This document shows, in pieces, positions 2,376 through 41,778 of a stretch of 64,000 nt of DNA (position 1 is its first letter; every line of letters starts with the position of its first letter). Below the pieces are notes generated by a model, which saw nothing but the letters and a program-made list of their open reading frames with translations, had not been told where the DNA came from and ran no database searches. This DNA comes from Deroplatys truncata (taxonomy: Eukaryota; Arthropoda; Insecta; Mantodea; Mantidae), in assembly GCA_030765065.1 (NCBI GenBank), contig CM060979.1:21667001-21731000 (forward strand). Reading direction: 5' to 3'. The position numbers were made by a program, and so were the translations under genes.

Positions 2376-3481
2376 GCCTGTTTACATGAGGGATGATGAC
2401 ATTTCCAGCATCTTTTGTAAGGTAAGGTTTTATACATGTTCGAAAAAGTGGAGTTTAGGTACAGGCAAATCGAACTCCTGCCTTACCAGCTACCGCCACA
2501 CTGTATCAGGGGCGGCTTCTTAATATGGTAGCACGTTTGAGCTAATGCCAACATTCTGGCTCTCCCTTTAATGTAAATAACGTATACGATTCATACATTT
2601 CGGTTATCATTCTGACATTATCTTGTGGAGTGGGCTTTGGCAAGCATTGTATTGTTTGCAGGTGCCAAGTAGTGCACTCCCGGCTGCAACCCACATTGGT
2701 ATAATGGTGAAGTATAAGGAATGACGAACCAAGGAAGCGCAAAGGTGTGTGTGTGGGGGGGGGGGGAAGTGCGGGCATAAACTGCATGTTGTTGGTTAAC
2801 CTCGTAGTCAGAGAGCATAGAATAGGATAATCAACAGGAACAATACTTTTCATTTCGTCCCATACACAGAGCCATCTATTGAATTCACAGTAAATGTTTA
2901 CCTCACTTCCGGTCTTCTATCTACTGAACAGCATCTCTGATCATCACGTTGCCTGTATGCCATGTGGTTTGTGCCGTGTTGTGTGTACCGGGTTTTAATT
3001 TATGAATCAAAGTGGTTTATTTAGCTAAATACAGGTAAACGCTGTTATAAGGAGAAACAATGAATTCCGTTCAGTCTCTTTTAACATAACCGTTTTCATT
3101 GCTAAACTTGGAGGAAAAGAATGAAATTAAACGCACTGGCAGACCCACACCATACCTAAAAGTCACTCTGGTAGTTCAAACAAAAACAAGAAGTTTTAAC
3201 AGGAATTTTAACAGCGATGTATATGAAAAATATGATTGGATGTGTGGTTGTGATATTAAAAATGCCCTGTTTTGCTTTCCTTGCATTTTGTTTGGTGGTG
3301 AAGATACATGGACAAAGCATGGCGTGAATGATTTGCAGCATCTTCATGACCGCGCCAAAGTTGCACATGAAAAATACTGTCAGTCTTGACTAATTTTGAA
3401 GATTTAGAAGCTAGTAACAGTGATGTGTCATAATTTAAAATAAAGAGAGTTGAGGGTTGTTACACTACATCACACAACAAA

Positions 3482-4297
3482 CTAACGTTCGGCATTTACA
3501 GAAAACCAACGCACACAGAAAATTATATTCAAAACAATAGCTACAATCCTACAAGCCACAAACATGCAATTTTAAATAGTATTACAAACAGGTTAGTACA
3601 TATACCAATGGAGAAAGAGGAATACCAGAAAGAATACCAACACATTATCAACATAGCCACTATGAATGGATACCAGAAAAAAACAATAGATAAGAAGATA
3701 AAAAGGTTTGAAAGACAGAAATACATCCAACAAATGATTACGTTACTCAGACAACAAAACCCACAAGCATATAGAAAATTCACTTATCACCCTTGGACAC
3801 ATCATAAATTTCAAAGGATTTTCAAGAAATACATCACCCTGTCTCCACAGAATAACCACAATATACAGAAACTACTATGCAACAGAACAAAAGATCCTAT
3901 CCCCAACGATAAATCAGCTGGTATATATCAAATTGATTGTAATGAATGTAACCTGGTATACATAGGAAGAACCAAAAGAAATCTTGAAATAAGACTTAAA
4001 GAGCATATGAGATGCATTTACCAAAAGCAGCCAGATAAATCAGCAGTAGCACATCATTTCTGGTCTTCAAACCATGATATCACTCTGAACATAAAACTCT
4101 TAAAACCGATCAACAGCAGCAATGAATTGGCCATCTGGGAAAGAATACACATTGTCAAACACAGGAATCACCTAATGAATTTCGAACTGCCGCCACCCAG
4201 CAGCCTTTGGAGGTTCTTCAGCCCAGCACCAGAGAACACCACTAGCCACACACATCCCCCAGACAATGACCAGAAACATCAGTTGAGAACATGCTGA
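3482..4297 (+). CDS. PLE-A RT C-terminus plus GIY-YIG endonuclease (5' truncated)
   Basis: The frame is open from 3482 (LTFGIYRKPTHTENYI, the conserved end of the PLE reverse transcriptase) through 4297; the first ATG is at 3608, giving 229 aa. From that ATG the endonuclease core starts near residue 103: AGIYQIDCNECNLVYIGRTK, then RNLEIRLKEHMR, and later NELAIWERIHI, which supplies the usual acidic residue. It ends in a proline/serine-rich tail. GIY-YIG endonuclease fused behind the RT is the hallmark of canonical PLEs and cuts the target for reverse transcription. The RT core is missing, so this copy cannot move itself. The long open frame suggests a fairly young insertion, clearly younger than hAT-1. 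Confidence 0.85.
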   Translation, partial: LTFGIYRKPTHTENYIQNNSYNPTSHKHAILNSITNRLVHIPMEKEEYQKEYQHIINIATMNGYQKKTIDKKIKRFERQKYIQQMITLLRQQNPQAYRKFTYHPWTHHKFQRIFKKYITLSPQNNHNIQKLLCNRTKDPIPNDKSAGIYQIDCNECNLVYIGRTKRNLEIRLKEHMRCIYQKQPDKSAVAHHFWSSNHDITLNIKLLKPINSSNELAIWERIHIVKHRNHLMNFELPPPSSLWRFFSPAPENTTSHTHPPDNDQKHQLRTC

Positions 4298-4345
4298 CGA
4301 TGGGAACAAGCCGTCTCCCGAAATGTGTTCAAGTAAGAATATTTT
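4283..4345 (+). ncRNA. Hammerhead-ribozyme motif of PLE-A copy 1
   Basis: CTGACGA (4294-4300) is followed by a stem II hairpin (GGGA ... TCCC, 4302-4319), then GAAA (4320-4323) and a very short stem III ending in GTT, the expected NUH cleavage triplet. Stem I would pair aacatg before the core with caagtaag after it, with one mismatch. Hammerheads with a very short stem III are known in PLE terminal repeats, where they act best as dimers. The motif is seen; activity is inferred. Confidence 0.75.
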
Positions 4346-5875
4346 AGTGATGTAGTGTAACAACCCTCAACTCTCTTTATTTTAAACTGTCAGTCTTGTT
4401 ATGTTTGGCAATGTAAATATAGCAAAACAGATGGACAGTGCATATCGGAGAGCAATCAAAGAACACAACCAGAAAGTGGCTCAAAATAGATATGTTTTAA
4501 ACATTATTATTAACTGCATTAGGTTTTGTGGGGCCTTTGAGTTGGCTCTTCGAGGACATGATGAGTCAGCAACTTCAAGTAACCCTGGTATTTTTCATGG
4601 ACTGATAAATTTCAGTGCAGAGCTAGGCTGTGTTCTGAAAAACCATTTGGAAAATGCAACAGTGTTTAAGGGAATGTCAAAAATGATTTGAAATGAAATT
4701 TTGCAATGCATGCATGAGATATCGAAAGAAATAAAAGACTTGCCATTTTTATCTGTTATAGCAGATGAAACCAGCGACATAGCATCCAAGTATCAAATGG
4801 TAATTGTCTATAGATATCTGGTAAACCATAAGCCAGTGGAAAGGTACTGGGGTTTTGCGAATCCTATAGGACACAAAGCAGATAACTTAGCTGCATGCAT
4901 ATTGCCAGAACTTGATCGACATCTGCTAGGCTGTGAACATAAATTGATTGCTCAAACATACGATGGGGCTAATGTTATGTCTGGGTCGAAAAATGGCATT
5001 CAATCCATTATAAAACAGAAGTACAGGTCTGCAGAATACATTCATTGCCATGTGCATCAGTTAAACTTAATTATGCTAAATGCAGCATCAGCGAATAATA
5101 GTGTACAAATTTTCTTCATAAATCTTCAAGGAATTTGTGGTTTTTTTTCCCTCTAACTCTCCTCAGAGAACATCAGTTTTAGAAGAAGTAGTGCAGAAAC
5201 GGCTGCCAAGATCAGTGCAAACGAGATGTAACTTTCAATCTAGATCTGTCAACACAGTTTTCGAATACAGGGAGGAGTTAATAGAATGTATGAAAATCAT
5301 AAGGAGAGGCGAAAGAATCACCAATTCAAGTTCTGTTCTTCAAGCATCTGGTTTTATTGGAATTTTAAGTGATGCAGATTTCATATTTTGGTTGTCCTTC
5401 TTCCATAAAATCATGCCCCATGTCGATATTTCTACAACCAACTTTAGAGGAGCGACTGTACTCCTGTAATGGTCCAGGATAGACTTAATTATTTTGAGGT
5501 GGAAATTCTCAAAATTAGAAGCACCATAGGTTCCACTGCGGTTGATGAGAATGTAACGAAGAAAAGAAAAATTATGGAACACACTGAAAGAAAATGAGAG
5601 GCCATTGAAGTATGTGATGTAATCATTACTGAAATGAAAGACAGGTTCAGATTTGTTGCTCATATGGGAGCAGTAGTTCTCATTCAGCCTGACAGATTTT
5701 CAGAATATATCACTTCGTTCCCAGAACAACATATTAAAGTTGCCCTTCAGACATATTCTCTTATTGAAGAAAAGAAACTGATTACAGAACTTTCCACAAT
5801 GTATAGTACTGAAGAATTAAAAAACATAACTGGGATTGTTCCACTAATGGAGGTTTTCAGGGACAATAATTTATG

Positions 5876-6002
5876 AGTAATTTTGAAGATTTAGAAGCTA
5901 GTAACAGTAATGTGTCATAATTTAAAATAAAGAGAGTTGAAGGTTGTTACTAAAATGATTTTAGTGATGTAGTGTAACAACCTTCAACTCTCCTTATTTT
6001 AA
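5876..6002 (+). mobile_element. PLE-A mini-element (127-bp hairpin) with 13-bp TSD
   Basis: This second insertion in hAT-1 is flanked by acaataatttatg at 5863-5875 and 6003-6015. It consists of the PLE-A left extension (taattttgaagatttagaag...), the inverted tail and the direct tail, joined around a short loop near 5950. The whole thing can fold as a hairpin (agagttgaaggttgtta against taacaaccttcaactct). There is no coding sequence and no hammerhead core. It looks like an internal-deletion or template-switch derivative moved by a full PLE. Confidence 0.9.
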
Positions 6003-6512
6003 ACAATAATTTATGTTCCACTTTTAGTGAATCTGTTAAACTACTGTCATTCTAACAATCCCCATGGCAACGTGTGAGGCAGAAAGATGCTTCTCTACTC
6101 TGAAAAGGATTAAAACATTTCTGCGTAACACGTCTGAGGAGAGGTTATCTGTGTTGGCCATGCTTTCCATTGAAAGGGATTTCATCATGCAGATCAAGAA
6201 CTTCAATGAGTTGGTCATCGAAGTTTGATGGCAGGAAGGAGAGAAGGGCTGATTTTCTCTATAAATAGGTGAGTGCTATATGCTACACTGTTTATGAAAT
6301 GTTCATGTGTTATATATTGTGAATTCCCATTTCTTGTTTATTTGCGCAAATTAACCAGCCTATAGCGAGAAACTTATTCTGTATTTATTACTTAAAGTAT
6401 TTCAAATTGCAAGGATAATTTTGTGAACCACCAAAGTTCAGAGTCACCAGCCGTCCCTGCACTGTATGAACGGCAAATCAATAGTTCTGAAGCCTTGTAT
6501 ATAAAAATAATG

Positions 6513-6549
6513 ATAGGTAGAGAAAATCATGTAAATGTAACACATCAGA
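6513..6549 (+). repeat. Solo tail of repeat R1
   Basis: The sequence gtagagaaaatcatgtaaat followed by gtaacacatcaga matches the end of the R1 copies. Only the tail is present, just outside hAT-1, so R1 is either 5' truncated here or was cut by later events. Confidence 0.5.
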
Positions 6550-6559
6550 TTGTTTTATG

Positions 6560-7238
6560 AAGTATTCCTCCATACTTGATAAATAAAGCCTTCAGCCGTT
6601 CTTTAAATTAAAAAAATAATAATTTTTCATCACGGATACGTCATTATCAGGGCCTAGATTATGACATGTTATCTTTTAATTGTTGCATCATAAGCAGTGC
6701 TAACCTGTACATAAACCCTTATCATGGGTCCCAAATTATGAAAATGCACATTCATTAGTCATTTATTAAAATATTTTTATATCATTGACATTTTACATAA
6801 AATAAGTTTTCAAACAGAAATTTCACTATTCAACTGAGAAATAAGAGTAACTTTGTACATCCTTTACTCACATTCTTGGAAAAATCTCTTCCTTTTTATG
6901 GTTAGTCTGGAAACGGTTGCTTATGGGTAGCTATTGTCACGGGAGCAGGTATAATTACCATTATGAGTTAATTCCCAAACTAGAGATGAGACAGGTCAGC
7001 TTTCCCTTTTTTTGTGTTGAGTGGATAGTCAGGTTGTTGTCAACCTTGTCGTGTCATAGGCTGTGAAGTCCTCTTTGTTCACAATGAATTTTGTATAATC
7101 TTATAACTCAAAAGAGTTCATGCTATAGTATTGCGAGACCTGCTTCAAAAACAATCCCCCCCCACCCAGATTCTTCAAACAAGAACATAGAGCAAATTTA
7201 TTTTTAAATAATTTTCTAAATTACCTCATCATTATACT
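6560..7238. other. No gene recognised
   Basis: AT-rich sequence between hAT-1 and the pogo copy. I see no coding region or repeat end here. Confidence 0.6.
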
Positions 7239-7242
7239 TATA

Positions 7243-8396: not shown

Positions 8397-8398
8397 TA

Positions 8399-9598: not shown

Positions 9599-9599
9599 T

Positions 9600-9605
9600 T
9601 TTATT
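9600..9605 (-). terminator. Candidate polyadenylation signal of the ZNFX1-like gene
   Basis: AATAAA on the minus strand, about 135 nt downstream of the stop codon at 9739-9741, inside an (AAT)n stretch. It is the first canonical hexamer I noticed past the stop. A guess from position only. Confidence 0.45.
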
Positions 9606-9738
9606 ATTATTATTCTCTTCCTGACTTCCTATATTCACCATGTTGATCCCTAACCCTCATTTGATTCTCTAAACAATAAGCTTGAATATGATCAGTTTAA
9701 TTACTTTTAATCCAATGTCCTTATCCTGTGTTATATTG

Positions 9739-12900: not shown

Positions 12901-12959
12901 CGAATATTAAAACCATTGCTCATACAAGTAGCAAAGTCAGGTCAGTACTAAAAACAGAA

Positions 12960-13790
12960 AAGTAAGGAGGCATTGAGGTAAATTCGCTTGCAGTGATGCA
13001 TTAACTGCGCCTGCAACCCCCACAAATAGGGGGGCCCCAAAAGTTTGAGATACCATACTTTTACATGTTTAAGCCACACATGCAGCACCCTTTTATAAGA
13101 CTGTAAATTCAGGGAAAAATAGTTTTCTTGGAATTTTGGGAGTATTGAGAAATCATTGCGAATTCTCTAATCCTGCATTGGCCAAATTAACAGTACTGCG
13201 CGGGACAATAGCATGGAAGGGGTGCTTAGAATTATTTACTTCATTGTTACTTGAATTTATTGGTCAACAAGCATTGCCAAATTCAAACCACTTTTCTCTG
13301 TTCCTCATGTCATTCTGATCTACTAGGATAGTGAGTATAGGACTGCTACATTAATAATATTGTGAAAAAGGCCTTATTTTGACTGAAAATTAATTATGTG
13401 TACCAGTAGAGGATTTTAATATAGAAGTTGAGTACTTTTTTCCTATTGGTATTATGTCGATTGAGCGTATGTACTAGTCATCCACAATATGAGTGCATGC
13501 AGTGGGAAGAGGAGCTATAGAGTTACAGAACAAGTGGGTAAGGCATCTGAATACAGTTCCAAGTTACGCTTACTAGTGAAGCTGAGGCCTGCAAATGTAG
13601 TACTGCTTTCATTGTGCAACTGTACATTCCTCTATTGCCTTGACCCTCACTCCCCTCTGATCCCTAGCCTTGTTGATGCATTGGCAACAAAAACAGTTTG
13701 CACCCTCCTCCATACACACTCGTATCTGGCCGAGTAGTACCGTAGTGGAGCGACGAAAGAAAGAAGAAGAAAACTAAAGAAAGGGATGCC
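12960..13790. other. No gene recognised
   Basis: Intronic sequence between the copia fossil and hAT-2. The G/C-rich run near 13020-13040 (ggggggccccaaaa) resembles the 5' region of some ZMYM1-type hAT elements, but I could not define a terminus. Confidence 0.4.
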
Positions 13791-14599
13791 TTGGTAACAA
13801 AACTCCAAAACAATTTTCACATTTTTCACTGATAAAAAAGGAGATGGACAAAGTGTTCCAATAGAAACTGCAGAAAATGAAAAATGTGCAAATGATGGCT
13901 TTTATGAAATAGATGATTCTGCTAATTTTGTGGGCAAGTCCATAAAATGTGAACATAGCACTTGCTTTCCCATGGTTCTAATAATAATGAAGATGAGTTA
14001 ATAAATTGTGAAAGTAGCACTAATTTTTCCTTGACTAACATTTCTCAAACAAATGTCAAAACCTATATGCATTTATCTCAAAAGAACCCCACCGATCGAA
14101 GTAATTTTACTAAAAAAATTGCAGATAATTTAAAGAAGTGTATAGTAAGAAATAGTGAAAAGGGTAATTGACGTGTCACTGACCTTAACAATGTGCAATA
14201 CCTATGGTCTTTTGAGGGCATAGAAAAATACTAGGTGAATCACACAGTGGTAATTGTCTTGCTGTTATTGAACTTCTTAATAAATATGATCCCATTTTAT
14301 CTCTGTTAATGAATGAGAAGGCAAAAAGAAAAAACAGCTACTTAAGTCCCCAAATACAAAACAAACTCATTCAGATGCTGTGTTCACAAATAAAAACACA
14401 GGCAGTTGAAGAAAGAAATACATGATGATGGTTCTATTACCTAATATTGGATACTATCCAAGATGCAACTAAGCATGATGAGTTAACTTTAATTTTGCAA
14501 TACATCTTAGTAAAGATAAATAACACACCTATAGAGTTCACAATACAGGAAAGCTTTCTAGAATTTTTTAGAGTTGGGGATGAGAGTGCACATGGATTA

Positions 14600-14774
14600 T
14601 CCCCCAGACGATGACCGGCAAATATCAGTTGAGAGAGAATGCTGACGATGGGGACAAGCCGTCTCCCGAAACGCGTTCAAGTAAGATTATCATAGTGATG
14701 TAGTGTAACAACCCTCAACTCTCTATTTTAAATTATGACACATCACTGTTACAAGCTTCTAAATCTTCAAAAAT
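14600..14774 (+). mobile_element. PLE-A tail fragment, copy 2
   Basis: This matches the last part of PLE-A: cccccagacgatgaccgg..., the hammerhead motif, tgatgtagtgtaacaaccct and the long tail through cttctaaatcttcaaaa. It is 5' truncated and keeps the full 3' extension. It sits between a TA inside hAT-2 (14598-14599) and the truncated interior of an ITm-1 transposon, where that transposon's own end would be expected. Confidence 0.85.
14630..14690 (+). ncRNA. Hammerhead-ribozyme motif of PLE-A copy 2
   Basis: CTGACGA (14642-14648), stem II of GGG...CCC type with an internal irregularity (tggggacaagccgtctccc), GAAA (14668-14671), then CGCGTT with the GTT cleavage triplet. Same arrangement as the motifs at 4283 and 17375. 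Confidence 0.72.
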
Positions 14775-15368
14775 TGAGATGAAGTATTGTTTGTTTTTAG
14801 CGACTTTTTAAATGTTTCCTGCTTCTGTGTTTGAACAGTTTATTCACACTGTGTTCGCACTACACACACCTTCCTCTGCCATGTGAGCTCAAATACCAAC
14901 TGACTAAATCACAAGATTTGACCTGAGCTGAGCATGTGTGTGTTAGTGTATTATGAATGACTGTTCGCTTATCATATATCCTGTGTTACGCAAAGTGTTT
15001 ATTCGGTACTCAGATAGCACCTCTGGGAATTCATTACTGCATTTCTTGTATATGTAAGATAGTGGCATTCGTGCATAGGGTTGGTATTAACAAGCAAGAT
15101 GCTCTCGGCGTTAGCGCAATAGCAGGCGAAAATCATATTTTGTAATCTCTTAACAGCTAGTATATATCCATTACATTTAACGACGAGTTCTTATGATAAC
15201 CGCAATAAAATGTGCAGTTCTATAACTTTCCTGCTCTAATATTTCATAATACAATACATGTATTAAGGAACTATTTACGTTGGCGTAAGAGTATATTCTT
15301 GGGTTCGTGACAAGCCGAAGCACGTGCTTCTGTTTACATCAGAGGGAACTCTGGTTTGGAATGGACAA
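14775..15368 (-). mobile_element. ITm-1 copy 1 (Tc1/mariner superfamily), truncated
   Basis: Reverse-complement homologue of 36110-36850, with the same terminus: it ends ggtttggaatggaca at 15368, followed by TA at 15369-15370. The hAT-2 reading resumes straight after this TA. The target reads catggatTA / TAgttttagaattc across the insertion, so the insertion duplicated TA. The other end of the transposon is missing and replaced by the PLE-A tail. It contains the unoccupied target of the hairpin element at 36343-36468. Confidence 0.85.
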
Positions 15369-16009
15369 TAGTTTTAGAATTCATTGAAAACAATGGAATT
15401 TCCATACAACAATACAGAAATAAAGATTACAATGGAGTGAAAGTGATGAGTGGAGTATAGTCGAGGAGTGCAAGAGCAGATCAAAAGACTGGAGCCGATG
15501 GCCAATTAGATATATTGTGCTGCCCACAATTTGAATTTAGACCTAAGAGATGCAGCTAAGATACCACAGATAACACCTTTTTGCAACTGGCTTGAAAGTA
15601 TATAATTTTTTTTCAGTTCCATTATTGAAACATGACAACTATTAGAAGAAATGCAATTGGAAAGAAAACCCCCAACTCTCAAAAGATTATGTCCAAGAAG
15701 ATGATCTTCAGCTTATGACACTACCCGTTTCCATTATCAAGATGTCATGAGGGCTTTAAGCAATATAATAGTGACCTCTAAAGATTAAAATGAGCATAAC
15801 GAAGTAACTTCCGTAAGAAAACAAATGGAAACTAACGAGTTTATGGTTCAGATGGTAGTACAAAGCAAAGTGTTGCACACTACCAATATCATGTCAAAAT
15901 AAGATCGCCTAATTAACATACACAGTATTAATTTTAAATCGGAAGACACAGTGAAAAGATTAAGTATAATATATAGAAATGGTTGCAAATATACAATTTC
16001 GCTAAAATA

Positions 16010-16070
16010 GGTTCAATACCTCAGAACTAGTTTCGAGGAATCACTTCCTCATCGTCAGCTGATTGCAACT
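16010..16070 (-). ncRNA. Hammerhead-ribozyme motif of PLE-B
   Basis: Reading the minus strand: CAATCAG, then CTGACGA (16058-16052), a perfect 6-bp stem II (GAGGAA gtga TTCCTC), GAAA (16034-16031), C-TA-G short stem III, GTT as the cleavage triplet, then CTGAGGTATTG. Stem I can pair CAG/CTG next to the core and CAAT/ATTG beyond a small bulge. It is the best-formed hammerhead in the window. The motif is seen; cleavage is inferred from the family. Confidence 0.85.
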
Positions 16071-16099
16071 GGTTGGCTTTCCTCTGATGGTTATAGATG

Positions 16100-16737
16100 T
16101 CTCGTCCCTCTAGTGATGGTTCTATAAATTTCGTAATCAAATTTTTGTCTATAGGGATGTCGAAATTCATTAACCTTGGACGAAATTTCCAAAGAAATAT
16201 TTTCTCCCAAATGTTTAATTCCGTAGGTTTTGGTGCCTGCTTGATAAGTGATCTGTGTCCTCAATTTCATGTCCTTGTATCCAAAAATGTGCTGCAACTG
16301 CTGATTTTTCTTCTTCCTTGGATTTGATGTTTCGAAAATGTTCCTTAAGCCTCGTTTCTATGTTATGCTTAGTTTGACCAATATAGATTTGTTCACAATC
16401 CTTGCAATCTATTCTGTAAATCCCGGATTTTTTATGAGCCGGCATGTTTTCTTTTTGGTTTGCATTTATGAGGAATTTTATGCTGAATTTATTTTTGGGG
16501 ATGAGTGCCACATTGATATCATTGAAAATTTTCTTGAATTTGTTATGTGCCCATGGGTGAAATGTGACTTTTTTGTATGTCGGCTTTTGTTTGTGTGGTT
16601 TGAGGGTTGTATTTTCTTTTATCATTTTTTGTTGCCTGAATTTTTTGATTAAACTATCCACCATATCTGTTTTGTAGCCATTTTTTCTAGCTGTTTTTAA
16701 GATTTCTTGGTATTCTAAGTTATATTCCTTTTCATTG
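16100..16737 (-). CDS. PLE-B GIY-YIG endonuclease region (5' truncated)
   Basis: The minus-strand frame begins at the arm junction with NEKEYNLEYQEILKTARKNG, which parallels the start of the PLE-A ORF (EKEEYQKEYQHIINIATMNG). It continues MVDSLIKKFRQQKM..., then the endonuclease core SGIYRIDCKDCEQIYIGQTK, NIETRLKEHFRNI and a C-terminal EISSKVNEFRHPYRQKFDY. One frame change near 16220 separates the last ~45 residues. It is a sister lineage to PLE-A with clearly diverged sequence. The missing RT makes it non-autonomous. Confidence 0.82.
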
Positions 16738-17202
16738 AGGTATTGAACCTATTTTAGTGAAATTGTATATTTGCAACCATTTCTATATATTATATACAGT
16801 ATCACTGGGTGAAGCATTTAGTTCACTTCAACAATTTAGAAATTGCTGTAACAAAGTAACACTGAAGAAATGGCAAATACATGATAATGATGATGATGAT
16901 AAATGTTATTGTCCTTAAGCTTATACAGCAATAGACAAGTCAAAGATATATACAATTGTTTACAAGTAATGCAGGAATGTACAAATTTGATTGCAATATT
17001 ACCCATAGTTGTATGGGTTAAGTATTTCTAGTTTATGCTGTACACATATCACAAGGTCCTACCGTATACTTATTAGTGTTGGTACTATGTACTTTTTAAT
17101 TTACAAAAAATTCTTGTAAAGAGTAAAAAGACGTCACAATGAGCCAGTCAAATAATTTATGCTTAAAAGCTGTTTTAAGTTTGAAATTGTACATTTTGGA
17201 AC

Positions 17203-17480
17203 CGACCACAGCAGCAATGAATTGGACATCTGGGAAAAAATACATATCGTCAAACACAGGAATCACCTAATGAATTTCGAACTGCCACCACCCAGCAGCC
17301 TTTGGAGGTTTATTAGCCCAGCACCAGAGAACACCACTAGCCACACACATTTCCCAGACAATGACTGGCAAAATCAGTTGAAAACATGCTGACGATGGGA
17401 GCAAACCATCTCCCGAAACGCGTTCAAGTAAGAACATTTTAGTGATGTAGTGTAACAACCTTCAACTCTCATTATTTTAA
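17203..17480 (+). mobile_element. PLE-A copy 3, 5' truncated, inside the LINE
   Basis: It keeps the end of the GIY-YIG protein (NELDIWEKIHIVKHRNHLMN), the hammerhead motif and the tail to tattttaa. It is flanked by attttggaacc (17193-17203) and attttggagcc (17481-17491), an 11-bp or longer duplication with one difference. The LINE protein reads on across the site (YLAPKF / PKMYNFKL), confirming a simple insertion. Confidence 0.87.
17375..17435 (+). ncRNA. Hammerhead-ribozyme motif of PLE-A copy 3
   Basis: CTGACGA (17389-17395), 5-bp stem II (GGGAG caaaccat CTCCC), GAAA (17415-17418), CGCGTT with GTT as the cleavage triplet, then caagtaag as the 3' side of stem I. It keeps the core of the other PLE-A copies with a cleaner stem II. 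Confidence 0.77.
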
Positions 17481-18827
17481 ATTTTGGAGCCAAGTATTTC
17501 AAAACTTTTTGAGTTACAGCCAATCTACAATATGGGACATCGATGTGTTGCCATGATCTAGTAATATGTGAATGAACATCTTGTCTGTTTTGTAATTCAG
17601 ATATATGACTTTTGATATACAACAAAACGGTGTAGATATGTAAACTTATTACTGTCAGTATTCTTAGTTTAATAAATAGTGGTTTATAATGAGCTAGTCT
17701 TGGTTCATTCCACATAATGCAAATGACCTTTTTCTGTAGTAGAAAAATTTTGGAAACATGAGAGCTGTTACCCCAAAACAAAATACCATAAACTATAGTG
17801 CTTTGAAAAAATACAAAATATGCTGATCGAATGTAAGCTGTAGGTACATGCAATTTCAAATTTCTAATCAAATGTATAACTCTGGAGAGTTTACACGTAA
17901 TGAGATCTATGTATGGTGCCCAGGATAATTTACTGTCTAATAAAAACACCTAGAAATTTCACATTATCCGAGTTATTAGCAAAAGTATCGCTACAATTAA
18001 AAATCATGTGGTATGTTTTGCTTTAGTTGAGTAGGAACCCATTGGGCCTAAATCATGTATCTGCTTGGGTCAATACATTGTCGATGTTAGTTTTTAGTAA
18101 TCATTACTCATGTAGTGTCATCTGCATACAAAATAGAGTGAGAGGTCACATGAGATGGAAGATTGTTGATGATTACTAAGAATAATAAAGGTCCCAGTAT
18201 TGAGCCTTGAGGTACACCATATTTAATCTCGGCTATTTTAGATCTCTCATTTCCTATGAAAACCATCTGTCTCTGATTTACAAACTGGGAACTGAATGTC
18301 AATTTGCCAGAAAATGCACAATTAAAACAAAGAAAGTTTTTTTGATGAATTGTGTAAGGATAAAAGGCTAAGTGATATGGAACAGTCTTTCAAATTTAAT
18401 GTGTTATATGATTATTTGGATATCGTGTTAGGTCAATTACGCCTCAGATTTAAAAGCATGATGTACATCACTGAAAAGTTCAAGTGCTTTTGACCCAGTA
18501 TACTCATGGATAGTAATAACAGCTGCAGAAAAACTTTAATGAGCTATCTGAATGATATTTCACACAATATTTTCACCAACTACTCATGGTCCGTAATGTA
18601 CTTCAGAGCAATATCAAAGCGTAAGTTAACAGATCTAATCCTCATAAAAAAAATCACAATTATTTCTAGTGTCCCTGATGTCTCAGTGGCATTGAAATTA
18701 TTTGTAACTCTCTTTGTGACAGTGGTTTCAGCAGTAAGAACTTTCTCAAAATTAAAATTAATTAATCACCATGCGCACAGTTCGATGACACAGGAGCATT
18801 TGTTTCCCTTAGTGGAAAGAGCATATA

Positions 18828-28338: not shown

Positions 28339-28380
28339 AAAAAAAAAAAAAAAAAAAAAAACCACACACACACACACACA
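28339..28380. repeat. (A)n(CA)n simple repeat
   Basis: A run of about 22 A residues followed by CA repeats, possibly the remains of a retroposon tail. Confidence 0.85.
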
Positions 28381-29749: not shown

Positions 29750-32700
29750 TGTTTGATAGCATCTGAAAGCTCAGTTAATGTAAGTGTATACGGTACTAGC
29801 CATCATCAATACAATAGAGGTATTGAGAAGATGGCGGCTAGTGGTATGTTTACTCGTAGTAAAGTGCAGAAAATTAACCCAATAATGGTAAAATCGTGTG
29901 AAAATGGTGAATACTTGCTTAGTAGAAGTTGTGGAAGAAGTGGAAATGAAGGTAGACCAGTTAAAAATATGATCAGATGGCTAATGTAGTTGATCGCCAT
30001 AAAATGCACAGTGATGCTGAAGTGGTGGTATTGTTTCAGCTAGTAATAGATATTTTAAATAAGGACCTTCAAGCAGCAAGACAAGAAGTAAGAGATTTAA
30101 GATTACAGAATGAGAACTTAAATCGCGAAATAGAAGGGTTGGAAAGAGAAAAATGAGCTCAAACTTGGAATACGGCACTGGAGTTTAAGCTCGAAAATAC
30201 TGAAAATGGATACGTAGTACATAAACAAAGGTGGCGATACTCGGAAGCAGTAATTGGAGGTTACAAGAATCAGAGGCAGGAATCATGTGAGAAAAGTGTT
30301 GCCTTACAAATTCTAATAGATTTGAATTGCTGTATGAAGATCAGGAAAATGGTGAAAAATTAAGCCATAGGGAATGTAAATCACAGATAAATAATTCAGT
30401 AAATACAAGTAGGAAAATTGTGGTGCTTGGAGAGTCTTTGCTGAAATTTTCCGGTGAAGTTTGTAGAAAAAAAGGATATAAAGTAAACTGCTTCCCTGGA
30501 ATAAAAACAAATGAGCTGAAGTATAAAGTGGAAGGAAAGGAGCTGGTAAATGAGAATATGGAAGTTGTTTTGTTACATGTTGGGACTAATGATACTAGAA
30601 GATGAGTGTATGCAGAAGAGATTATAGGAAAACCTATGGATGTCATTGCTAGTGTTAGAACGTTGCACCAAGGGCTAAAGTTATTGTGAGTGGTGTGTTG
30701 AGGTGACAGGATATAACTGATAGAAGAATACAGCAGATAAATAGTGAACTCAACTGGTTGTGTGAAAGGAGAAATTGTTCCTTTTTTGATGGAAACTTCT
30801 GGCACCAAAAACAAGATTTGTGTAAGGATGGGGTCCATTTGAATCACAGAGGATCCTAAATTTTTGGTAACCTTTTGTGTGATGCAATAATATCATTAGA
30901 TAAGGGAAACGAGTAATGAAAGAGGTGGTTGTATCTAAATACAAGAAAGAACATGATCTTAGGGTCTTTCATCTTAATATACAGGCTATAAATAGGAAAG
31001 TATTACTTCTTGAACAAATCTCTAGTGAGTTTAACCTAGATATAATCATTTTAAGAGAACATTGGTGTAATAAACATAAAATAGATTTACATAAACCAGA
31101 TAATTGTAACAAAAAATCTGACATTGTAGAGGAAATACTAAGGGCGGGGGTGTTATCTATACCAGAAATAACATCCCTGTACAGTCGATAAATATGACAG
31201 AATATTGTAAGGAAAAACTCTTTGAGGTAACAGGCATAGAATTAAGTGTACAAACTGGTAAATTATTAAATTTGGAATTTATAGATCCCCATCATCTTCA
31301 GTAACAGATTTTTTTGCATGTTTGGATAAAATGCTGAACAAATTTTTTGCACCAAAGGTACATATAGTTTAGCTGGTGACTTTAATGTTGATGCTAATCA
31401 TGAAAATAATGTTTATAAAAAACTGCTGGACATTTATAATAGTAAGGATTTAATACATGAGACTACAAGGGTCACTTCTAATACTGCAACAGTGGTAGAT
31501 CATATAGCATCTAATATGTATGAGAAAGTTTATAATATGGAAGTTATAAATATCCATATCTCAGACCATTATGCTCAGCTTATTGACATCACTGATCAAA
31601 TAGTGGAGGAAAACTGTAACCTCGAGAAAAGATACCAAGTAATTAATGGAAAAAGTTTAAATAATTTACTTTTATTGTTGGCTGAGGAAAATTGGGAAAG
31701 TATCTATAACGTAGAGAATGTGAATGAAAAATGGTACAAATTTTATAGTATATATAGGAAACATTTCAATTCTGCCTGTCCTATGATTAACAAAATGCAT
31801 AAAAGTAAAATCTTATTAAAGATTCACTCCCTACTTATATTCTAAAAACTATGAGGAAAAAATGAAGAATTTCTATGAATTATATAAAAGTTCAGGTTAT
31901 ATGCATTTTAAAACAAAATATAATGAAGCTAAAAAGCAATACTCTAAACAGGTATTTTCTAGGTGTTGCAAAAAAAAAAAACACAAAAAAAAAAAACAAA
32001 CAAACAAACAAACAAACAATGAAGTTTCAGTACCAAGTGGTACTGATAGAAATAGTGTTAGCTCTTCATTATTTATTGCTTCTACAAGTGAGAAAGAAGT
32101 AACTGAATTAATTAATCACTTAACAAAGAAAAACTCATGTGGTTGGGATGAAATAAGCGCAAAGATATTAAATCATTGTAAAGAGCAGTTTGTTAAACCT
32201 CTTGAACACCTTATAAATTTTTCTTTTCAGGCGGAACTTTTCCCGAATTGCTGAAGATAGGGTTAGTTAGATCAGTACATAAACAAGGTGATCAGACAAA
32301 TATAAATAATTATCGTCCTATAACCTTAACATCCGAATTAGCTAAATGGTTTGAAAAAAATTATTTTAAATCGAATGGTACATTTCCTAAATTTAAATAA
32401 TGTATTTGTGATTTTCAATTTGGTTTTAGGAGAGGTCTTTCAGCTATAACATTGATCGCTGACTTCATACATGAAGTTTTTGGTAAACTAGAAAAGGGTG
32501 GGAAAATTGGCACTATCTTTCTTGATTTAACAAAAGTCTTTGTTTCAGTAAAGCATGACTTATTAATAAATAAATTAGAACATTATGGTGTATGGGGAAT
32601 AGCTAAGAAACTAATCACATCATATTTAACAGGAAGGAAACAAGCAGTGCAAATTCCATATAAGACAGAAAAATCAATAAATACAATATAGTCAGATTAT

Positions 32701-33612: not shown

Positions 33613-33635
33613 TTATTCTTGAAGGTATCACTAAG

Positions 33636-34585: not shown

Positions 34586-34589
34586 GTAA

Positions 34590-36105: not shown

Positions 36106-36342
36106 CCTACTGTCCATTCCAAACCAGAGTTCCCTCTGATGTAAACAGAAGCAAATGCTTCTGCTTATCACGAACCCAAGAACACACTCTTACGCCAAAG
36201 TAAATAGTTCCTTAATACATGTATTGTATCATGAAATATTAAAGCAGGAAAGGTATAGAACTGCACATTTTATTGCGGTTATCATAAGAACTCATTGCTA
36301 AAGGTAATGGATACATACTAACTGTTAAGAGATTACAAAATA

Positions 36343-36468
36343 CGTAAGTATTGTAATGAAAAGAAGCTAGAAACAGTGATGTGTATTGAATCTATTTAAA
36401 GGTGAGTCGAAATTGTTACACTAACACTTAAGTGATGTTAGTGTAACAATTTCGACTCACCTTTAAAT
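36343..36468 (+). mobile_element. PLE-A-type mini-element (126-bp hairpin), 13-bp TSD
   Basis: Flanked by agattacaaaata at 36330-36342 and 36469-36481; ITm-1 copy 1 has this sequence once with no insertion (about 15139-15151). The left part (gaagctagaaacagtgatgt) matches the PLE-A left extension. The rest is an inverted repeat running from 36391 to 36471, with 35-bp arms (left arm tctatttaaaggtgagtcga...) that reaches 3 bp into the right duplication and has an 11-nt loop. Its length is almost the same as the 127-bp element at 5876, but the arm sequence has diverged. Confidence 0.88.
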
Positions 36469-36740
36469 AGATTACAAAATATTATTTTCGTCTGCTGTTG
36501 CGCTAATGCTGAGAGTATCTTGCTTGTTAATACCAACTGTATGCATGACTGCCATTCTCTTGCATATACAAGAAATGCAGCAATGAATTCCCAGAGGTGC
36601 TATCTGAGTACCAAATAAACACTTTGCGTAACACAGGAAATATGATAAGTGAACAATCATTCATAATACACTAGCACATATATGCTCAGCTCAGGTCAAA
36701 TCTTTTTATTGTGATTTAGTCAGTTGGTATTTGAGCTCAC

Positions 36741-36962
36741 ATGGCAGAGGAAGGTGCTTGTAGTGCGAATAAACTGTTCAAACACAAAAGCAGGAAACGG
36801 TTAAAAAGTGGCGAAAAACAAACAAAACTTCATATATTCAACTCACTATTACAAAAATACCCGATACTTGCATTAGTGGATATTACGAAACTAATATCGG
36901 ATTTTACAGGCGTTTCAGTGAGAAGTGTAACCAAAGCGAGCAAAGAATATAAACAGACATAA
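36741..36962 (+). CDS. Transposase N-terminal helix-turn-helix (ITm-1), 73 aa remnant
   Basis: MAEEGACSANKLFKHKSRKR, then SGEKQTKLHIFNSLLQKYPI and LISDFTGVSVRSVTKASKEY. The pattern (S/N)GEKxxxLNxYNxxxxxxPxxxxxxxxxxxTGVSxxSVxRxxxE is typical of the N-terminus of a DDE_3/IS630-type transposase widespread in insects. The frame stops at 36962 and the catalytic part is deleted, so this could at most make a DNA-binding fragment. The same motif is degraded in the ITm-2 elements (SGEKSIVLN...TGVSSTSI in copy 2). Confidence 0.65.
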   Translation: MAEEGACSANKLFKHKSRKRLKSGEKQTKLHIFNSLLQKYPILALVDITKLISDFTGVSVRSVTKASKEYKQT

Positions 36963-37369
36963 CAGAACATAGAAGTAGATAAAATATGGGAACTTGTTTT
37001 AAGTGCGACAGTGCTGTGGAATTTTGGATAAGCTTGTCATTATTTTGGAGAGTAGTTCAGATTCCGATATGGCAGCTGAGTCATCTTCGGAGGATTCAGA
37101 TTTGGGTGTTGCACTTTTGCCCGAGGATTGTGATTAACGTAAGTAAAATGTTCATTTCCGCATGCTTATAAAATCGATTGTTACCTCAGTTGCATTTTGA
37201 ATTATGATTCTCACGCAGGGTGCCTTTTTACAGATTGAAACGATGTTCAACAAGCATGTGAGAAGCGAACAAGCCATTAGAGGTGGGGATTGTGAACTAC
37301 TTTCACGTGGAAAATACAAAGAGCTTGTTTACTGTGAAAGGCTCTCTGGTTTGGAATGGACAGTAGTTA

Positions 37370-37955
37370 TTATTTTGTGTTTCAACAAAATTAAGAATTA
37401 GCTAAGAGATGGTGCACCTTCATTTATGCTGAAACACATGATGGGAGTTATAAAGCACTGCTGTGAATTACACATGCATGCCACATGGTTTGAGGAATGC
37501 TAAGCCATAAGCTAACTTGGATAATTGTTGGCAATAAGAAAACACATTGGAGACTGAATAACAATGATTCATAAGATGACAGTGATCTGTTCGTTAGTGA
37601 TTTAAGTGGTGATGATGAATTGGGTATTGATGTATTGAGAAAGAAAAATGAAAGTTGCTTAGAGAAGTTGAAATAATAATTATAATAACAGCCCTTCTTC
37701 TGGGTTTCTGATTTATTGTACAAATGTGTTTGAATGAATATTTAGTTTACTGGAAGAGATAGCATCTTCATTTCAAGATGAATTTTTATGTAATATGCAC
37801 CACAGCTGATGGTACTGCAAAGCAGTTTGTTCACAGTTAACAATACAAAAGATATTCTAGGCAACATAGAAAAATTGTGGTTCTTAGTGAGGTTTGTCAT
37901 ACTGTATAATTTGTTTCATTTACGTTCCTTTGATTCAAGGATTTCAAAGAAGCTT
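37370..37955. other. No gene recognised
   Basis: Intronic sequence between ITm-1 copy 2 and R1 copy 3; nothing recognisable. Confidence 0.5.
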
Positions 37956-37959
37956 AGCA

Positions 37960-39058
37960 TTTTTACTTTCTCTTAGGTAGAAGAAGTATTGGATTCCACC
38001 CAAAAATGTGATAGCAAGCCTTCTTCAGAAACACATGTTTTGAGACTCCCTGAATCCAAAACAAGCATCTTTAGAAGAGGGAGGGGGAGGGAGGGAGAGA
38101 GATTAAAATTTTCCAAGAATATGACAAACATTTTCAAGAAAATCCCCCGCGCTCCGAACTATCCTTTACTTGAAAAAATGTTTGTTACCTTTTATTTCCT
38201 CAGAGATGTTTCTAAAGATTTTGATTAAAATACCACATGTTTAAGATATGTGCATGAAAAATAAAAATGTATATCTTTTATTTTCTGGGAATGCCTATTA
38301 AGTTCTCTCCATGAATAAATTTGTTTATAACTTCTAAAGCTTATGACTAGACTAGAACTACTAAACAAAAAATGTAGATTTGGAAAATACAGAATTTGTC
38401 ATATACATTTTTTGTGGCATTAGCCATTTCTGAGATATTCTTTATTTTTGGTTTGGATTGTCAAACACTTCCTAATTTTTTGACTGCTAAAGTCACTACT
38501 GTTTTATTCTTGTGGTCAAGCAAAGAGCATGGAATTTGAAAACCATCACACTATATTGACTAACGCTTAAGCCTACTGTATTTCCTTGGACCTGCAACAA
38601 AATGTGGAATAAAACCATTTCTGCAAATGCTGTTTCTAACACTGCCCATAGCCTTTGATCTTTGGGGGATACCTCATTCCACCAAGCAATGACTAGACCC
38701 ATTTGAGGTGGGAGCACACAGCAGGCAGAATACATTGCCTCCGGTTGTAGGGTGGTGATGATGGCAATGGAATGAAAGGACCTACAGCTTTTATCGTACA
38801 CTCCAAACCACATTAAACCAAGGGGATACTTCACATGAGCAAGTTAGAGGTGAAGGTGTAGACAGTGCCAACTTTAATTTACCAACCCGAAGCCAGGAAT
38901 CAAACCCTGGACCATCAGTACAAGCCGGAAAGAAAACCACTGCATTACCCCATACTTCTGCAAATGATTATAACTAGAAACATATAGAAGAATGAGTTTT
39001 GTAAGAAGAGTTTTTAGAGGAGTAGGTAGAGAAAGTCATGTGAATGTAATACATCAGA
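37960..39058 (+). repeat. Repeat family R1, copy 3 (diverged, with a SINE inside)
   Basis: It starts tttttactttctcttaggta and ends gtaggtagagaaagtcatgtgaatg and tacatcaga. It is more diverged than copies 1 and 2, which resemble each other closely. A 326-bp SINE with an 11-bp duplication sits at 38630-38955, accounting for its extra length. Confidence 0.72.
38630..38955 (-). mobile_element. tRNA-derived SINE with 11-bp TSD
   Basis: Flanked by ttctgcaaatg at 38619-38629 and 38956-38966. On the minus strand the head reads ggtaatgcagtggttttctt (A-box-like) and gtccagggtttgattcctgg (B-box-like, compare GGTTCRANNCC), as in pol III-transcribed tRNA-derived SINEs. It is inserted in R1 copy 3. Confidence 0.75.
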
Positions 39059-39205
39059 TTTTTAACCTAATGCAATACTGTCTGCATGTTCTTATCTTCC
39101 TTTGGTTTATCAACTTTAGGGACATAACTGGTAGATTTAATATAATAATTAACTCTTTACGCAGGAATATTCCTGAGTAACTTATTGCCCCACAATCATG
39201 CAGCC

Positions 39206-39208
<3 letters not shown>

Positions 39209-39280
<72 letters not shown>
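39209..39280. repeat. 72-bp A tract
   Basis: An uninterrupted run of 72 A residues followed by tttaataataataat. It could be an expanded retroposon tail, but no body was recognised upstream. Exact length may suffer from sequencing slippage. Confidence 0.9.
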
Positions 39281-39283
<3 letters not shown>

Positions 39284-39368
39284 AATAATAATAATTTGAA
39301 CAATTCTTCTGGGTATATGGGTTTCCATGTAATTGAGATTATTGTATTTATTGTGCTAAGAGTTTTAC

Positions 39369-39579
39369 ATTTTTTAAAATAAAAAGGGTTGAAGGTTGTT
39401 ACACCACATCACTAAAATATTCTTACTGAACGCGTTTCGGGTCACGATGGGAGCAAACCGTCTCCCGAAACGCGTTCAAGTAAGAATATTTTAGTGATGT
39501 AGTGTAACAACCTTCAACTCTCTTTATTTTAAATTATGACACATCACTGTTACTAGCTTCTAAATCTTCAAAATTAGTC
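39369..39579. mobile_element. PLE-A snap-back copy (211 bp) with 11-bp TSD
   Basis: Flanked by aagagttttac (39358-39368 and 39580-39590). The left arm (39380-39440) is the reverse complement of the right arm (39463-39530): ggttgaaggttgttacacca, then cactaaaatattcttact, then gaacgcgtttcggg, against their inverses. The right side continues into the full PLE-A tail (ttatgacacatcactg...aaattagtc). The stem II hairpin of the hammerhead lies at the turning point. The core reads tcacga instead of CTGACGA, so the ribozyme itself is lost. Confidence 0.88.
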
Positions 39580-39819
39580 AAGAGTTTTACGATTTGATTG
39601 TCTACTGCACTTTGACCCTGGCCACTCATTCAGTAGACAATATTTACATTTTACAATTTCCCGTCAACGCATTCTGTAGACAATCACTACAGATTATTTA
39701 CATTTTACAATTTCTCGTCAATAAATTATCTTGTTTTTTCAGTTTTTCATGTCCCATTTCCACTTGTTTTTCACTTATTGATTACTTAACCATCACACAT
39801 TCACTATAGTTTTCTATTC

Positions 39820-40330
39820 AAAGTAAGATACGCTACCTCTTACTTTTCTCTATCCACTGTCCAAAGCCATTTATTTTTTACTTTACACAAAAACTGTCCA
39901 ATGCTTCTAGCAACCTTGCACATCATTTCAATCATAAGTGTATTTCTATCCCCCTTCAACCACTTTAACTAAAAATTCTTTTCTCCAATTTTCTGTTCCT
40001 TGGCACTTAAATACTGTGTTTAATGTCTTCATTACCACCACATATCGAACATTGGTTTTGAGGAATACCCTGTCTTAAGCCTCTTAGCATCCATGCTCCG
40101 GTTCTTACCCATGCAATAGATTCTCTCTCTTCTTTATTTACTATGTCTATATATTTTTCCCTACCCCATGTATTTTTCATTGGCCTATAACAAACAAATA
40201 AGCTCTTTTCGGCAAATTCACTGAACATGATTTGTATTTCTATATCTTCCCATCTTTTCCTCGCCTTTTTCCAAAAAATTTTCACGTTATTTTCTCTCCT
40301 TCTCCACATGTCTCCTAACCCATTTTTCTG
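39820..40330 (-). pseudogene. LINE C-terminal fragment
   Basis: The minus-strand frame 40309-40007 reads GREKYIDIVNKEERESIAWV, RTGAWMLRGLRQGIPQNQCS, ICGGNEDIKH, then in another frame a FKCQGTENWRKEF-like stretch. This resembles the C-terminal CxxC...HxxxxC tail of non-LTR retrotransposon ORF2 proteins. No RT remains. Confidence 0.65.
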
Positions 40331-40439
40331 ATTATTGAGGCAGCCATATTAAAATTGACAGCCCGAAAATGATACAGGTTCTTACATGAATAGGAAAGGA
40401 TTTTATTCTATATGGGCATGGTTAATATTATATACTGCA

Positions 40440-40632
40440 TTAATATGTTTTGGAAAAAATATTTCTTTTTAACATGCCTTTCGGTATAAACTCTTTCAAT
40501 ACACTAAAATGAAACTTAAAATTTCGCAGAGGAATATTGTTATAAAAAGCCTCCACTACTGTAAGTTTTTCGGGCAAACCATAAAAGTTGGCAAGTATGA
40601 GGAAGGTCTGTTCATCATGCACCACAACAAAT
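40440..40632 (-). pseudogene. Candidate extra exon of the ZNFX1-like gene
   Basis: 155 nt downstream of the donor at 40788, after AG at 40634-40633 (aaatcccttag), a frame reads RFVVVHDEQTFLILANFYGL, PEKLTVVEAFYNNIPLRNFK and so on to a stop at 40440. Its entry phase (one base completing Arg, then Phe-Val) is compatible with the upstream exon ending ...DEPDAR. It therefore competes with the FVMLEDC exon at 26659. The ILANFxGLPEKL part resembles 26306-26158. It may be a relic of a second ZNFX1-like copy or a mutually exclusive end. Confidence 0.45.
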
Positions 40633-40787
40633 CTAAGGGATTTGGTAACACTGAGTAATTATCAAAACACACATGACAATCAATGACCAATTCCATATGT
40701 TTTGGTCATACATTTCTTACTCTATATTCCTAAAAATTTGCGTTTTCTGGGTGAGAACAAGTTTTGTGGTACAGTGGAATCACAAAC

Positions 40788-41005
40788 CTGGCATCTGGCT
40801 CATCTTCATTTCCAAAGAAAATTTCAGTAACTTCTTCTTTATTACAAATGCGACATAATGTGGGGCACTTCTCTCCACAAAATCCTATGCAAGGATGACC
40901 ACATTTAAGTCGATTTCTGCAGGGTTCTTCACATGGCCCTCTATTGCATAATTCATAGCATCGCTTGGTGCACCTTAAATGCACACAACGCCAAGAACAG
41001 GGTTC
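40788..41005 (-). CDS. ZNFX1: ZNFX1-like protein, NFX1-type zinc-finger exon
   Basis: Acceptor tttttccag (AG at 41007-41006) and donor GCCAG|gtttgt bound 218 bp, entering in phase 0 and leaving in phase 2. It reads EPCSWRCVHLRCTKRCYELC, NRGPCEEPCRNRLKCGHPCI and GFCGEKCPTLCRICNKEEVT, then EIFFGNEDEPDAR. The Cys/His spacing is that of NFX1-type fingers, and CRICxKEEVTEIFFGxEDEPDARFV is a signature of ZNFX1. The exon is intact. The donor (gtttgt) is a weak match to consensus, but both phase and protein continuity support it. Confidence 0.92.
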
Positions 41006-41009
41006 CTGG

Positions 41010-41700
41010 AAAAATTTAAATAAATAAATTATACAAATTTGCAATATTAAGTAAAAAGATTACAGCCATACAGCAACAACTCAAGGACCTGGTGCTTCCT
41101 TCAGTTTCAACTAATTCTTCAACTGTTGGGCATTTATCAATTTTATTTACTGTGTATCGCATACTTTGTTCTTTTGATATACATTGGAAGCATGTTTTAG
41201 ACCAACAGGCCACATTTTTGTTGTTACTCAGGTAATCAAAAGCAATCAAACTTTCATTGTAAAACTACAGTTAAGTTTTACAGAAATTACTAACCAGAGA
41301 ATACTACACAAACAGCGCTGAAAATACTGAATTATTCTTTAATGTGTTAACAATTTTATTAATTTGCTATGGATGGATAAATCAATAAATTAAACATTTG
41401 GATCATGCAACAAACTTTGGAAAAGTTTAATGTTTGGTGGAGAAGAAGAAGATTAATTTGCTATATACATATATTAGCATGTGAGTTCTGTTCAGCTAAT
41501 TCTGATTTCCAGAATAAATATTTCACATACACAATGGGCAGATTGACCAACCAATGCTGAATTTTAACACAATGTTACAGAGATTTAACATTGAAGTTAA
41601 CGTAAATACTCTTTCATTATAACATTGTGTTAAATTGTTGTAACCCTTGTGTAAAGGATTTAACAAATGTTAGAAATTGGAAAATGTCTGCCAAAAAACA
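41010..41700. other. Intron with a short inverted repeat, no gene
   Basis: The only structure seen is an inverted repeat, ttttaacacaatgtta near 41561-41577 against taacattgtgttaaat near 41619-41635, about 85 bp before the orphan hammerhead motif. It may be part of the same element. Confidence 0.5.
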
Positions 41701-41719
41701 AGCTATTTATGCACTATTT

Positions 41720-41778
41720 GAGTGACTCTTAGCTGATGATGAAGACAAGGTGTCTTCGAAATGCGTTTAAGGTAATTA
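41720..41778 (+). ncRNA. Orphan hammerhead-ribozyme motif
   Basis: CTGATGA (41733-41739), perfect 6-bp stem II (GAAGAC aaggt GTCTTC), GAAA (41758-41761), TGCGTT with GTT cleavage triplet, then taaggtaatt. Stem I can form from ctta before the core and taag after it. No PLE protein or PLE-A/B tail is attached, so it represents a third, diverged hammerhead lineage or a retrozyme-like remnant. Confidence 0.72.

What the first reader, a model, noticed from the sequence alone, without database searches (positions are those of the whole stretch)
3389..41778. Penelope-like elements carrying hammerhead-ribozyme motifs, five loci in one 64-kb window
Seen: CUGANGA, stem II hairpin, GAAA and a minimal stem III with a GUU cleavage triplet at 4283-4345, 14630-14690, 17375-17435, 16010-16070 (minus) and 41720-41778. 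Four are attached to PLE tails of two distinct lineages (PLE-A, PLE-B). Known: hammerheads occur in PLE terminal repeats and in retrozymes of several animal phyla. Inferred: the ribozymes process tandem PLE transcripts here. The density, and the link with hairpin derivatives, make this host a good place to study the process.
Basis: partly seen in the sequence, partly recalled or inferred. Interest (0 to 1): 0.8.

Follow-up and report, generated by a model that had tools for sequence, protein, structure and literature searches.

The report
Dimer-type hammerheads in Penelope-like retroelements
Five small self-cleaving-RNA motifs in this window are real and belong to Penelope-like jumping genes, an association already known, but the insertions sampled show no sign that the RNA they were copied from had been cut by the motif.

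Summary
Observation confirmed. All five loci carry a minimal type I hammerhead (CUGANGA-U, stem II, GAAA, tiny stem III, GUU). A covariance model built from three lineages not found in the window ranks these five first (E 2e-7 to 2.5e-3, rough). A structural descriptor finds exactly five; 300 shuffles give none. Rfam gives no hit. Genome-wide, one motif class has 2794 matches against 5 in the reversed control; among the 100 listed, stem III is self-complementary in 86, the mark of the dimer-type Penelope hammerheads already in print. PLE-A and PLE-B are GIY-YIG elements; 41733 is a solo copy of a third lineage. That ribozymes process the copied transcripts is not supported: of 131 PLE-A arms none begins at the predicted cut (1.45 expected by background), 55 run through it, 10 begin at one CAGTT site upstream; in PLE-B 0 of 10 begin there. 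One window arm does start within 2 nt of it. Insertions are mostly head-to-head with one long and one short end (42 LS, 3 LL, 0 SS, 6 unclear). New members of a known kind; the footprint test is the useful part.

The parts
3389..4386 (+). PLE-A insertion: inverted long-tail arm 3389-3473, GIY-YIG ORF part 3434-4294, hammerhead, short end at 4386; 13-bp flanking repeat ACTGTCAGTCTTG
4294..4329 (+). hammerhead core of PLE-A copy 1, stem III AAUGUGUU
   Evidence: E 1.9e-3
5874..6003 (.). PLE-A hairpin derivative, long end left and short end right, without hammerhead core; flanking repeat of 12-13 bp seen by eye (the automatic check with my guessed ends did not return it)
14603..14772 (+). PLE-A solo terminal region with long tail
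14642..14677 (+). hammerhead core of PLE-A copy 2, stem III AACGCGUU
   Evidence: E 2.5e-3
15929..16795 (-). PLE-B insertion: endonuclease ORF, hammerhead, long tail at the left, 59-bp inverted tail arm at 16736-16794; 7-bp flanking repeat ACAGTAT by eye only
16025..16058 (-). hammerhead core of PLE-B, stem III AACUAGUU, stem I UCAG/CUGA
   Evidence: E 3.4e-5
17200..17486 (+). PLE-A 5'-truncated copy with the end of the endonuclease ORF and a short tail
17389..17424 (+). hammerhead core of PLE-A copy 3, stem III AACGCGUU
   Evidence: E 6.8e-4
39371..39582 (.). PLE-A hairpin derivative, short end left and long end right, inner ends meeting inside the hammerhead (partial core at 39441, E 0.17); 11-bp flanking repeat AAGAGTTTTAC
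41733..41767 (+). solo hammerhead core of a third lineage (PLE-C), stem III AAUGCGUU, stem I weak; link to a PLE ORF not shown
   Evidence: (E 2.3e-7)

Best explanation
These are pseudo-LTR hammerheads of Penelope-like elements: minimal type I motifs whose stem III is a self-complementary octamer, so that two copies, in one tandem RNA or in two RNAs, can share an 8-bp stem III and act as a dimer. Shown by sequence: the motif, paired changes in stem II and stem III between lineages, its place between the endonuclease ORF and the tail, and the insertion anatomy (two inverted arms, usually one ending at a short and one at a long tail site, with flanking repeats of 11-13 bp in the best cases). Inferred: the element protein cuts both target strands and starts reverse transcription once on each, at two neighbouring internal sites in the tail; the cDNAs run back through an uncut hammerhead into the ORF or to an RNA 5' end at a CAGTT/CAGTC site just upstream of the core, and are joined head to head. 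Ribozyme cutting, if it occurs, acts on RNA that does not become template, or at another time.
For: Motif. Covariation: 2794 matches against 5 in the control; 86 of 100 listed stem III centres self-complementary, 10 of 12 hairpin groups against 3.9 in shuffles. Elements. Ends: 42 LS, 3 LL, 0 SS, 6 unclear; minus-plus order in 11 of 12 close neighbours. Junctions: 0 of 131 at q80-81, 55 through, 10 at q32; 0 of 10 in PLE-B. A stem II-deleted PLE-B form has 39 matches against 954 intact. The anole element starts reverse transcription at two internal sites, cuts both strands, and its hammerhead mutants insert normally in vitro (PMC11167929).
Against: No RNA data. The window's PLE-B inverted arm starts at the second base after the predicted cut. 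Three LL pairs exist, and two of three samples were chosen by the long tail, so SS pairs could not appear in them. Minimum-energy folds of the single RNAs or dimers do not show the hammerhead cleanly. Stem I is weak in PLE-A and PLE-C. The start site is read from junctions only; the initiator consensus is recalled.
Confidence: 0.65

Rival explanations
1. One reading: the hammerheads cut tandem PLE transcripts into units, and the cut units are the templates for new insertions.
For: The motif is conserved in pairing. One window arm starts at the second base after the predicted cut. Two PLE-A arms of 131 start within q79-82.
Against: 0 of 131 PLE-A arms at q80-81 and 2 at q79-82 against 2.9 expected; 0 of 10 PLE-B arms; 55 of 131 arms run through the motif; a form without the 5' strand of stem II has 39 matches.
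Confidence: 0.12
2. The motif is kept for other reasons (stop and start codons, a splice donor and a promoter lie on the same 50 bases) and ribozyme action is incidental or lost.
For: In PLE-A the ORF stop TGA lies in CUGA, an ATG begins at A9 and CAAGTAAGA follows the cut; a splice donor there is my recall-based reading. Copies with a broken motif were copied further.
Against: PLE-B has a stop three codons after the same ATG, yet keeps motif and palindrome; stem II and stem III change in step between lineages, which codons or a promoter do not ask for.
Confidence: 0.15
3. The loci are retrozymes, small non-autonomous tandem repeats with hammerheads, and not PLE parts.
For: 14642 and 41733 are solo copies without an ORF found beside them; the axolotl hammerhead also has a palindromic stem III loop (PMC7229834, passage). 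In L021, another lineage, two same-strand copies lie 215 bp apart.
Against: No tandem array of such a unit at the window loci; the motif sits directly after GIY-YIG ORFs and the copies end in PLE tails.
Confidence: 0.03

Closest known systems
Minimal type I hammerheads of Penelope-like elements (Cervera and de la Pena 2014; Lunse, Weinberg and Breaker 2017: not held; known here from passages in PMC7761336, PMC6155905 and PMC6466107)
   Same: Type I order, very short stem III, palindromic stem III loop for double hammerheads, place in pseudo-LTRs of PLEs.
   Different: Several lineages counted in one 4.29-Gb genome; insertion junctions compared with the cut. Whether the extra U after A9 is in the published consensus I only recall, not read.
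Penelope elements of the rotifer Adineta vaga (PMC3846280, passages)
   Same: Direct pLTRs, an inverted pLTR at the 5' side, a tail on one of the inverted pLTRs, target duplications of 8-10 bp, head-to-head order.
   Different: Low copy number there; here one family has 8082 long-tail matches. Palindrome joins are read there as self-priming on an antisense template.
Poseidon element of Anolis carolinensis (PMC11167929, parts 1 and 2 of 4 read)
   Same: Hammerhead at the pLTR-ORF junction next to the start codon, two internal RT start sites that equal the tail, cutting of both strands, no RNA-seq ends at the cut.
   Different: No long/short partition between strands was seen in vitro there; here pairs are mostly long with short.

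Membership tests
Penelope-like element | GIY-YIG endonuclease domain | tested here: met
   PF01541 in 3434-4294(+), E 9.7e-6, and 16218-16748(-), E 3.6e-8
Penelope-like element | reverse transcriptase in the same element | tested here: met
   not in the window copies (truncated); RVT_1 E 1.5e-7 in the PLE-A copy L023; not tested for PLE-B or PLE-C
Penelope-like element | inverted pLTR and optional tail | tested here: met
   three PLE-A pairs in the window, 51 in genomic loci; 59-bp inverted arm in PLE-B. PLE-C not tested
Hammerhead ribozyme, minimal type I | core CUGANGA and GAAA with stem II, cleavage triplet GUH | tested here: met
Hammerhead ribozyme, minimal type I | stem I | tested here: inconclusive
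   UCAG/CUGA in PLE-B, CUU/AAG in L021, interrupted in PLE-A, weak in PLE-C; no statistical test made
Hammerhead ribozyme, minimal type I | self-cleavage | not testable with these tools
   needs in vitro transcription
Rfam hammerhead families | score at the gathering threshold | tested here: not met
   0 hits in the window; none to a hammerhead at E up to 10 in 13000-18600
Dimer-type PLE hammerhead | self-complementary stem III | tested here: met
   5 of 5 in the window; 86 of 100 listed genomic copies with G-U pairs
Dimer-type PLE hammerhead | cleavage as dimer | not testable with these tools
   folding alone was not informative
Retrozyme | tandem units of about 150-450 bp each with a hammerhead | tested here: not met
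   no such array in the window

The most novel reading that the evidence does not exclude
The conserved palindrome of the hammerhead serves mainly to pair two element RNAs, or the two ends of one tandem RNA: a dimerisation signal that provides one template per target strand and so yields head-to-head insertions with one long and one short end, with cutting a later or minor use. In 2 of 48 PLE-A pairs (L046, L013) the arms differ at three or more non-CpG sites where both letters are common, so two different RNAs can enter one insertion; most pairs fit one RNA or close sisters, which neither helps nor harms the idea.
Probability: 0.15. Interest if true: 0.75.

Novelty: new member of a known kind. 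Interest (0 to 1): 0.45.

Why it matters
The role of hammerheads in Penelope-like elements is called a mystery in a 2020 review (PMC7761336, passages). A genome with thousands of such insertions lets the question be put to the junctions: which RNA ends became template. The first answer here is that no excess of cut ends is seen, while the palindrome is kept as its letters change, which points to pairing as much as to cutting.

Tried and rejected
Loose pattern as evidence: rejected, near chance. Descriptor without room for the extra U: found one locus. Cleavage-footprint idea: suggested by the window's PLE-B inverted arm, then tested on genomic copies and not borne out. Folding of single RNAs and dimers: minimum-energy folds do not show the hammerhead cleanly; not used. 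CpG decay in stem III of PLE-A: changes that keep pairing outnumber those that break it (21:3 and 11:6), against 4:4 and 11:2 at two other CpGs; one of the two behaves alike and subfamilies confound, so not used. Alignment of seven lineages: misaligned at the 3' side; only F, I and J were used for the model. Rfam on L099 and L101: weak microRNA-precursor matches caused by the palindrome, no hammerhead. Never answered, machine busy: DNA search with the 41733 stretch, a pattern for the CTGANGATGG class, and a pattern without the U as control; so the specificity of the extra U rests on the window scan alone, and PLE-C was seen in the genome only through the listing.

Rows dropped before counts: arms not reaching q120 were not counted (134 kept); three arms of L021, another lineage, were dropped for (131); one L021 pair was dropped between (49 pairs; 48). 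L029 is the window itself and was left out of the genome set.
Full report
What was checked. The bare pattern CUGANGA...GAAA...GUH is close to chance in this window (9 found, 4.0 expected, 4 of 100 shuffles reach 9). I therefore required stem II of at least 4 bp and the U that follows A9 in all five: exactly the five loci are found, and 300 dinucleotide shuffles give none with a palindromic stem III and one without that requirement. A covariance model from three lineages taken from the listing (F, I, J), which are not in the window, puts the five loci first with E 2.3e-7, 3.4e-5, 6.8e-4, 1.9e-3 and 2.5e-3; the next match is at 0.15 (short calibration, so rough). Rfam gives no hammerhead (whole window, 13000-18600).

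What carries it. The ORFs at 3434-4294(+) and 16218-16748(-) have GIY-YIG domains, and a genomic PLE-A copy has RVT_1. The PLE-A and PLE-B endonuclease parts are 44% identical. The window lies in a genome of 4.29 Gb whose name is withheld. A 32-base PLE-A tail pattern at up to 1 mismatch has 8082 matches and none in the reversed control. The PLE-B endonuclease query had 44168 first-look candidates, of which 150 were scored. From 20 of these 150, chosen by me with weight on the less identical ones, the stretch downstream was fetched: the hammerhead region is recognisable by eye in 20 of 20; the core expression matches in 8 of 20, two of these (L093, L097) with a shortened stem II.

Conservation. 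A pattern for hammerheads whose stem II starts G-A and ends U-C has 2794 matches against 5 in the reversed control. Only the first 100, all on contig C1, are listed. In these 100 the four central bases of stem III are self-complementary in 86 with G-U pairs and in 67 by strict pairs; of 59 distinct sequences in 45 and 32. Grouped by hairpin, 10 of 12 majority tetramers are self-complementary; exchanging halves among the groups gives 3.9 on average and reaches 10 in 6 of 20000 trials. The groups are an edit-distance clustering and are not all independent lineages. Stem II changes on both sides between lineages (GGGA/UCCC, GAGGAA/UUCCUC, GAAGAC/GUCUUC, GAAAGC/GCUUUC, GAGAGC/GCUCUC; read). Stem I is clear in PLE-B (UCAG/CUGA) and L021 (CUU/AAG), interrupted in PLE-A and weak in PLE-C. 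A self-complementary stem III loop for double hammerheads of PLEs is in print (PMC6466107, passages).

Insertion anatomy. Insertions are mostly head-to-head: inverted arms with the tails outside and the inner ends meeting. Neighbours less than 3.5 kb apart in the listing are in minus-plus order in 11 of 12 cases. PLE-A arms end at one of two sites. Of 51 head-to-head pairs in the genomic loci, 42 have one long and one short end, 3 two long ends, none two short ends, and 6 an end that could not be classed. Two of the three samples were chosen by the long tail and cannot show short-short pairs; the sample chosen by the hammerhead has 12 LS, 1 LL, 0 SS and 4 unclear. In the window the three PLE-A pairs are long/short and by eye the PLE-B insertion too. 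Flanking repeats: 13 bp at 3389-4386 and 11 bp at 39371-39582; 12-13 bp at 5874-6003, 12 bp in L099 and 7 bp for PLE-B by eye only. A tail on one of the inverted pLTRs is known from rotifers (PMC3846280, passages), two internal RT start sites from the anole element (PMC11167929).

Cleavage footprint. If cut RNA were the template, arms would begin at the base after GUU (q81 in my numbering). Of 131 PLE-A arms none begins at q80-81 (1.45 expected from the arms that begin in q36-108; chance of none 0.23, so this is lack of an excess, not depletion), 2 lie in q79-82 (2.9 expected), 55 run through into upstream element sequence, and 10 begin at q32, the A of TCAGTT 13 nt upstream of CUGA (P 6e-9). 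In the 80 arms from tail-chosen loci: 26 run through, 10 begin at q31-32, 0 at q79-82. At q32 the base before is never the templated C; it is G in 5 and T in 5 of 10, too few to argue for a cap. That CAGT(T/C) resembles an arthropod initiator is recalled, and the host is not known to be an arthropod. In PLE-B, ten arms with a complete post-cut tail, out of the 40 best places (45 listed), all continue into the hammerhead, and the two arms of L099 begin at or next to the same CAGTT site. Against this, the window's PLE-B inverted arm starts at the second base after the predicted cut. Cut RNA is at most a small share of templates in these samples; this says nothing on the cutting of other RNA, and 5' ends of full-length copies were not examined.

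Need for the motif. A PLE-B form lacking the 5' strand of stem II has 39 matches against 954 of the intact form, both at up to 2 mismatches. One head-to-head pair on C8 with this deletion and a changed C3 has open frames of 555 and 537 aa. Some of the 39 may be repeated deletions: in L099 one arm has it and the other does not. So the ribozyme is not strictly needed in the RNA that is copied; help in trans is possible.

Two templates. Arms of one insertion differ by 4.3% on average, arms of different insertions by 7.6% (49 pairs). In 2 of 48 pairs (L046, L013) they differ at three or more non-CpG sites at which both letters are common, which suggests two RNAs; most pairs fit one RNA or close sisters.

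What is in print. Searches of the held papers listed no paper that by title, abstract or the passages I read counts insertion junctions against the hammerhead cut; the two key papers on PLE hammerheads are not held, so this is no claim of priority. [quoted passage not shown]

Verdict. Real and correctly described; a known association in a further genome. The processing inference is not borne out by the insertions sampled.

Noticed in passing
window 209-880, minus strand: Remnant of another PLE-like protein: weak similarity to the PLE-B endonuclease (E 3e-4) and to a PLE-A RT-endonuclease stretch (E 1e-4); no Pfam hit for the ORF 107-607.
   Followed up: partly
window 36362-36450; L021 3913-4349: Divergent PLE terminal region (lineage D). 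In L021 it has stem III AACAUGUU, one minus and two plus copies of the hammerhead, the plus copies 215 bp apart.
   Followed up: partly
window 43408-44793, plus strand: 461-aa open frame with VEINPGP near its start, like a 2A motif (recalled) of some non-LTR retrotransposon ORFs.
   Followed up: no
window 31330-31845, plus strand, and 17374-17949, minus strand: Open frames that look like LINE endonuclease and LINE reverse-transcriptase fragments, by eye only.
   Followed up: no
window 4294-4340: In PLE-A the ORF stop codon lies in CUGA, an ATG begins at A9, and CAA-GTAAGA, like a splice donor (recalled), follows the predicted cut by 3 nt.
   Followed up: no
G000 C8 18259209-18262469 (ends held as L096 and L095): Head-to-head PLE-B pair with open frames of 555 and 537 aa in which both arms carry the same broken hammerhead.
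   Followed up: partly
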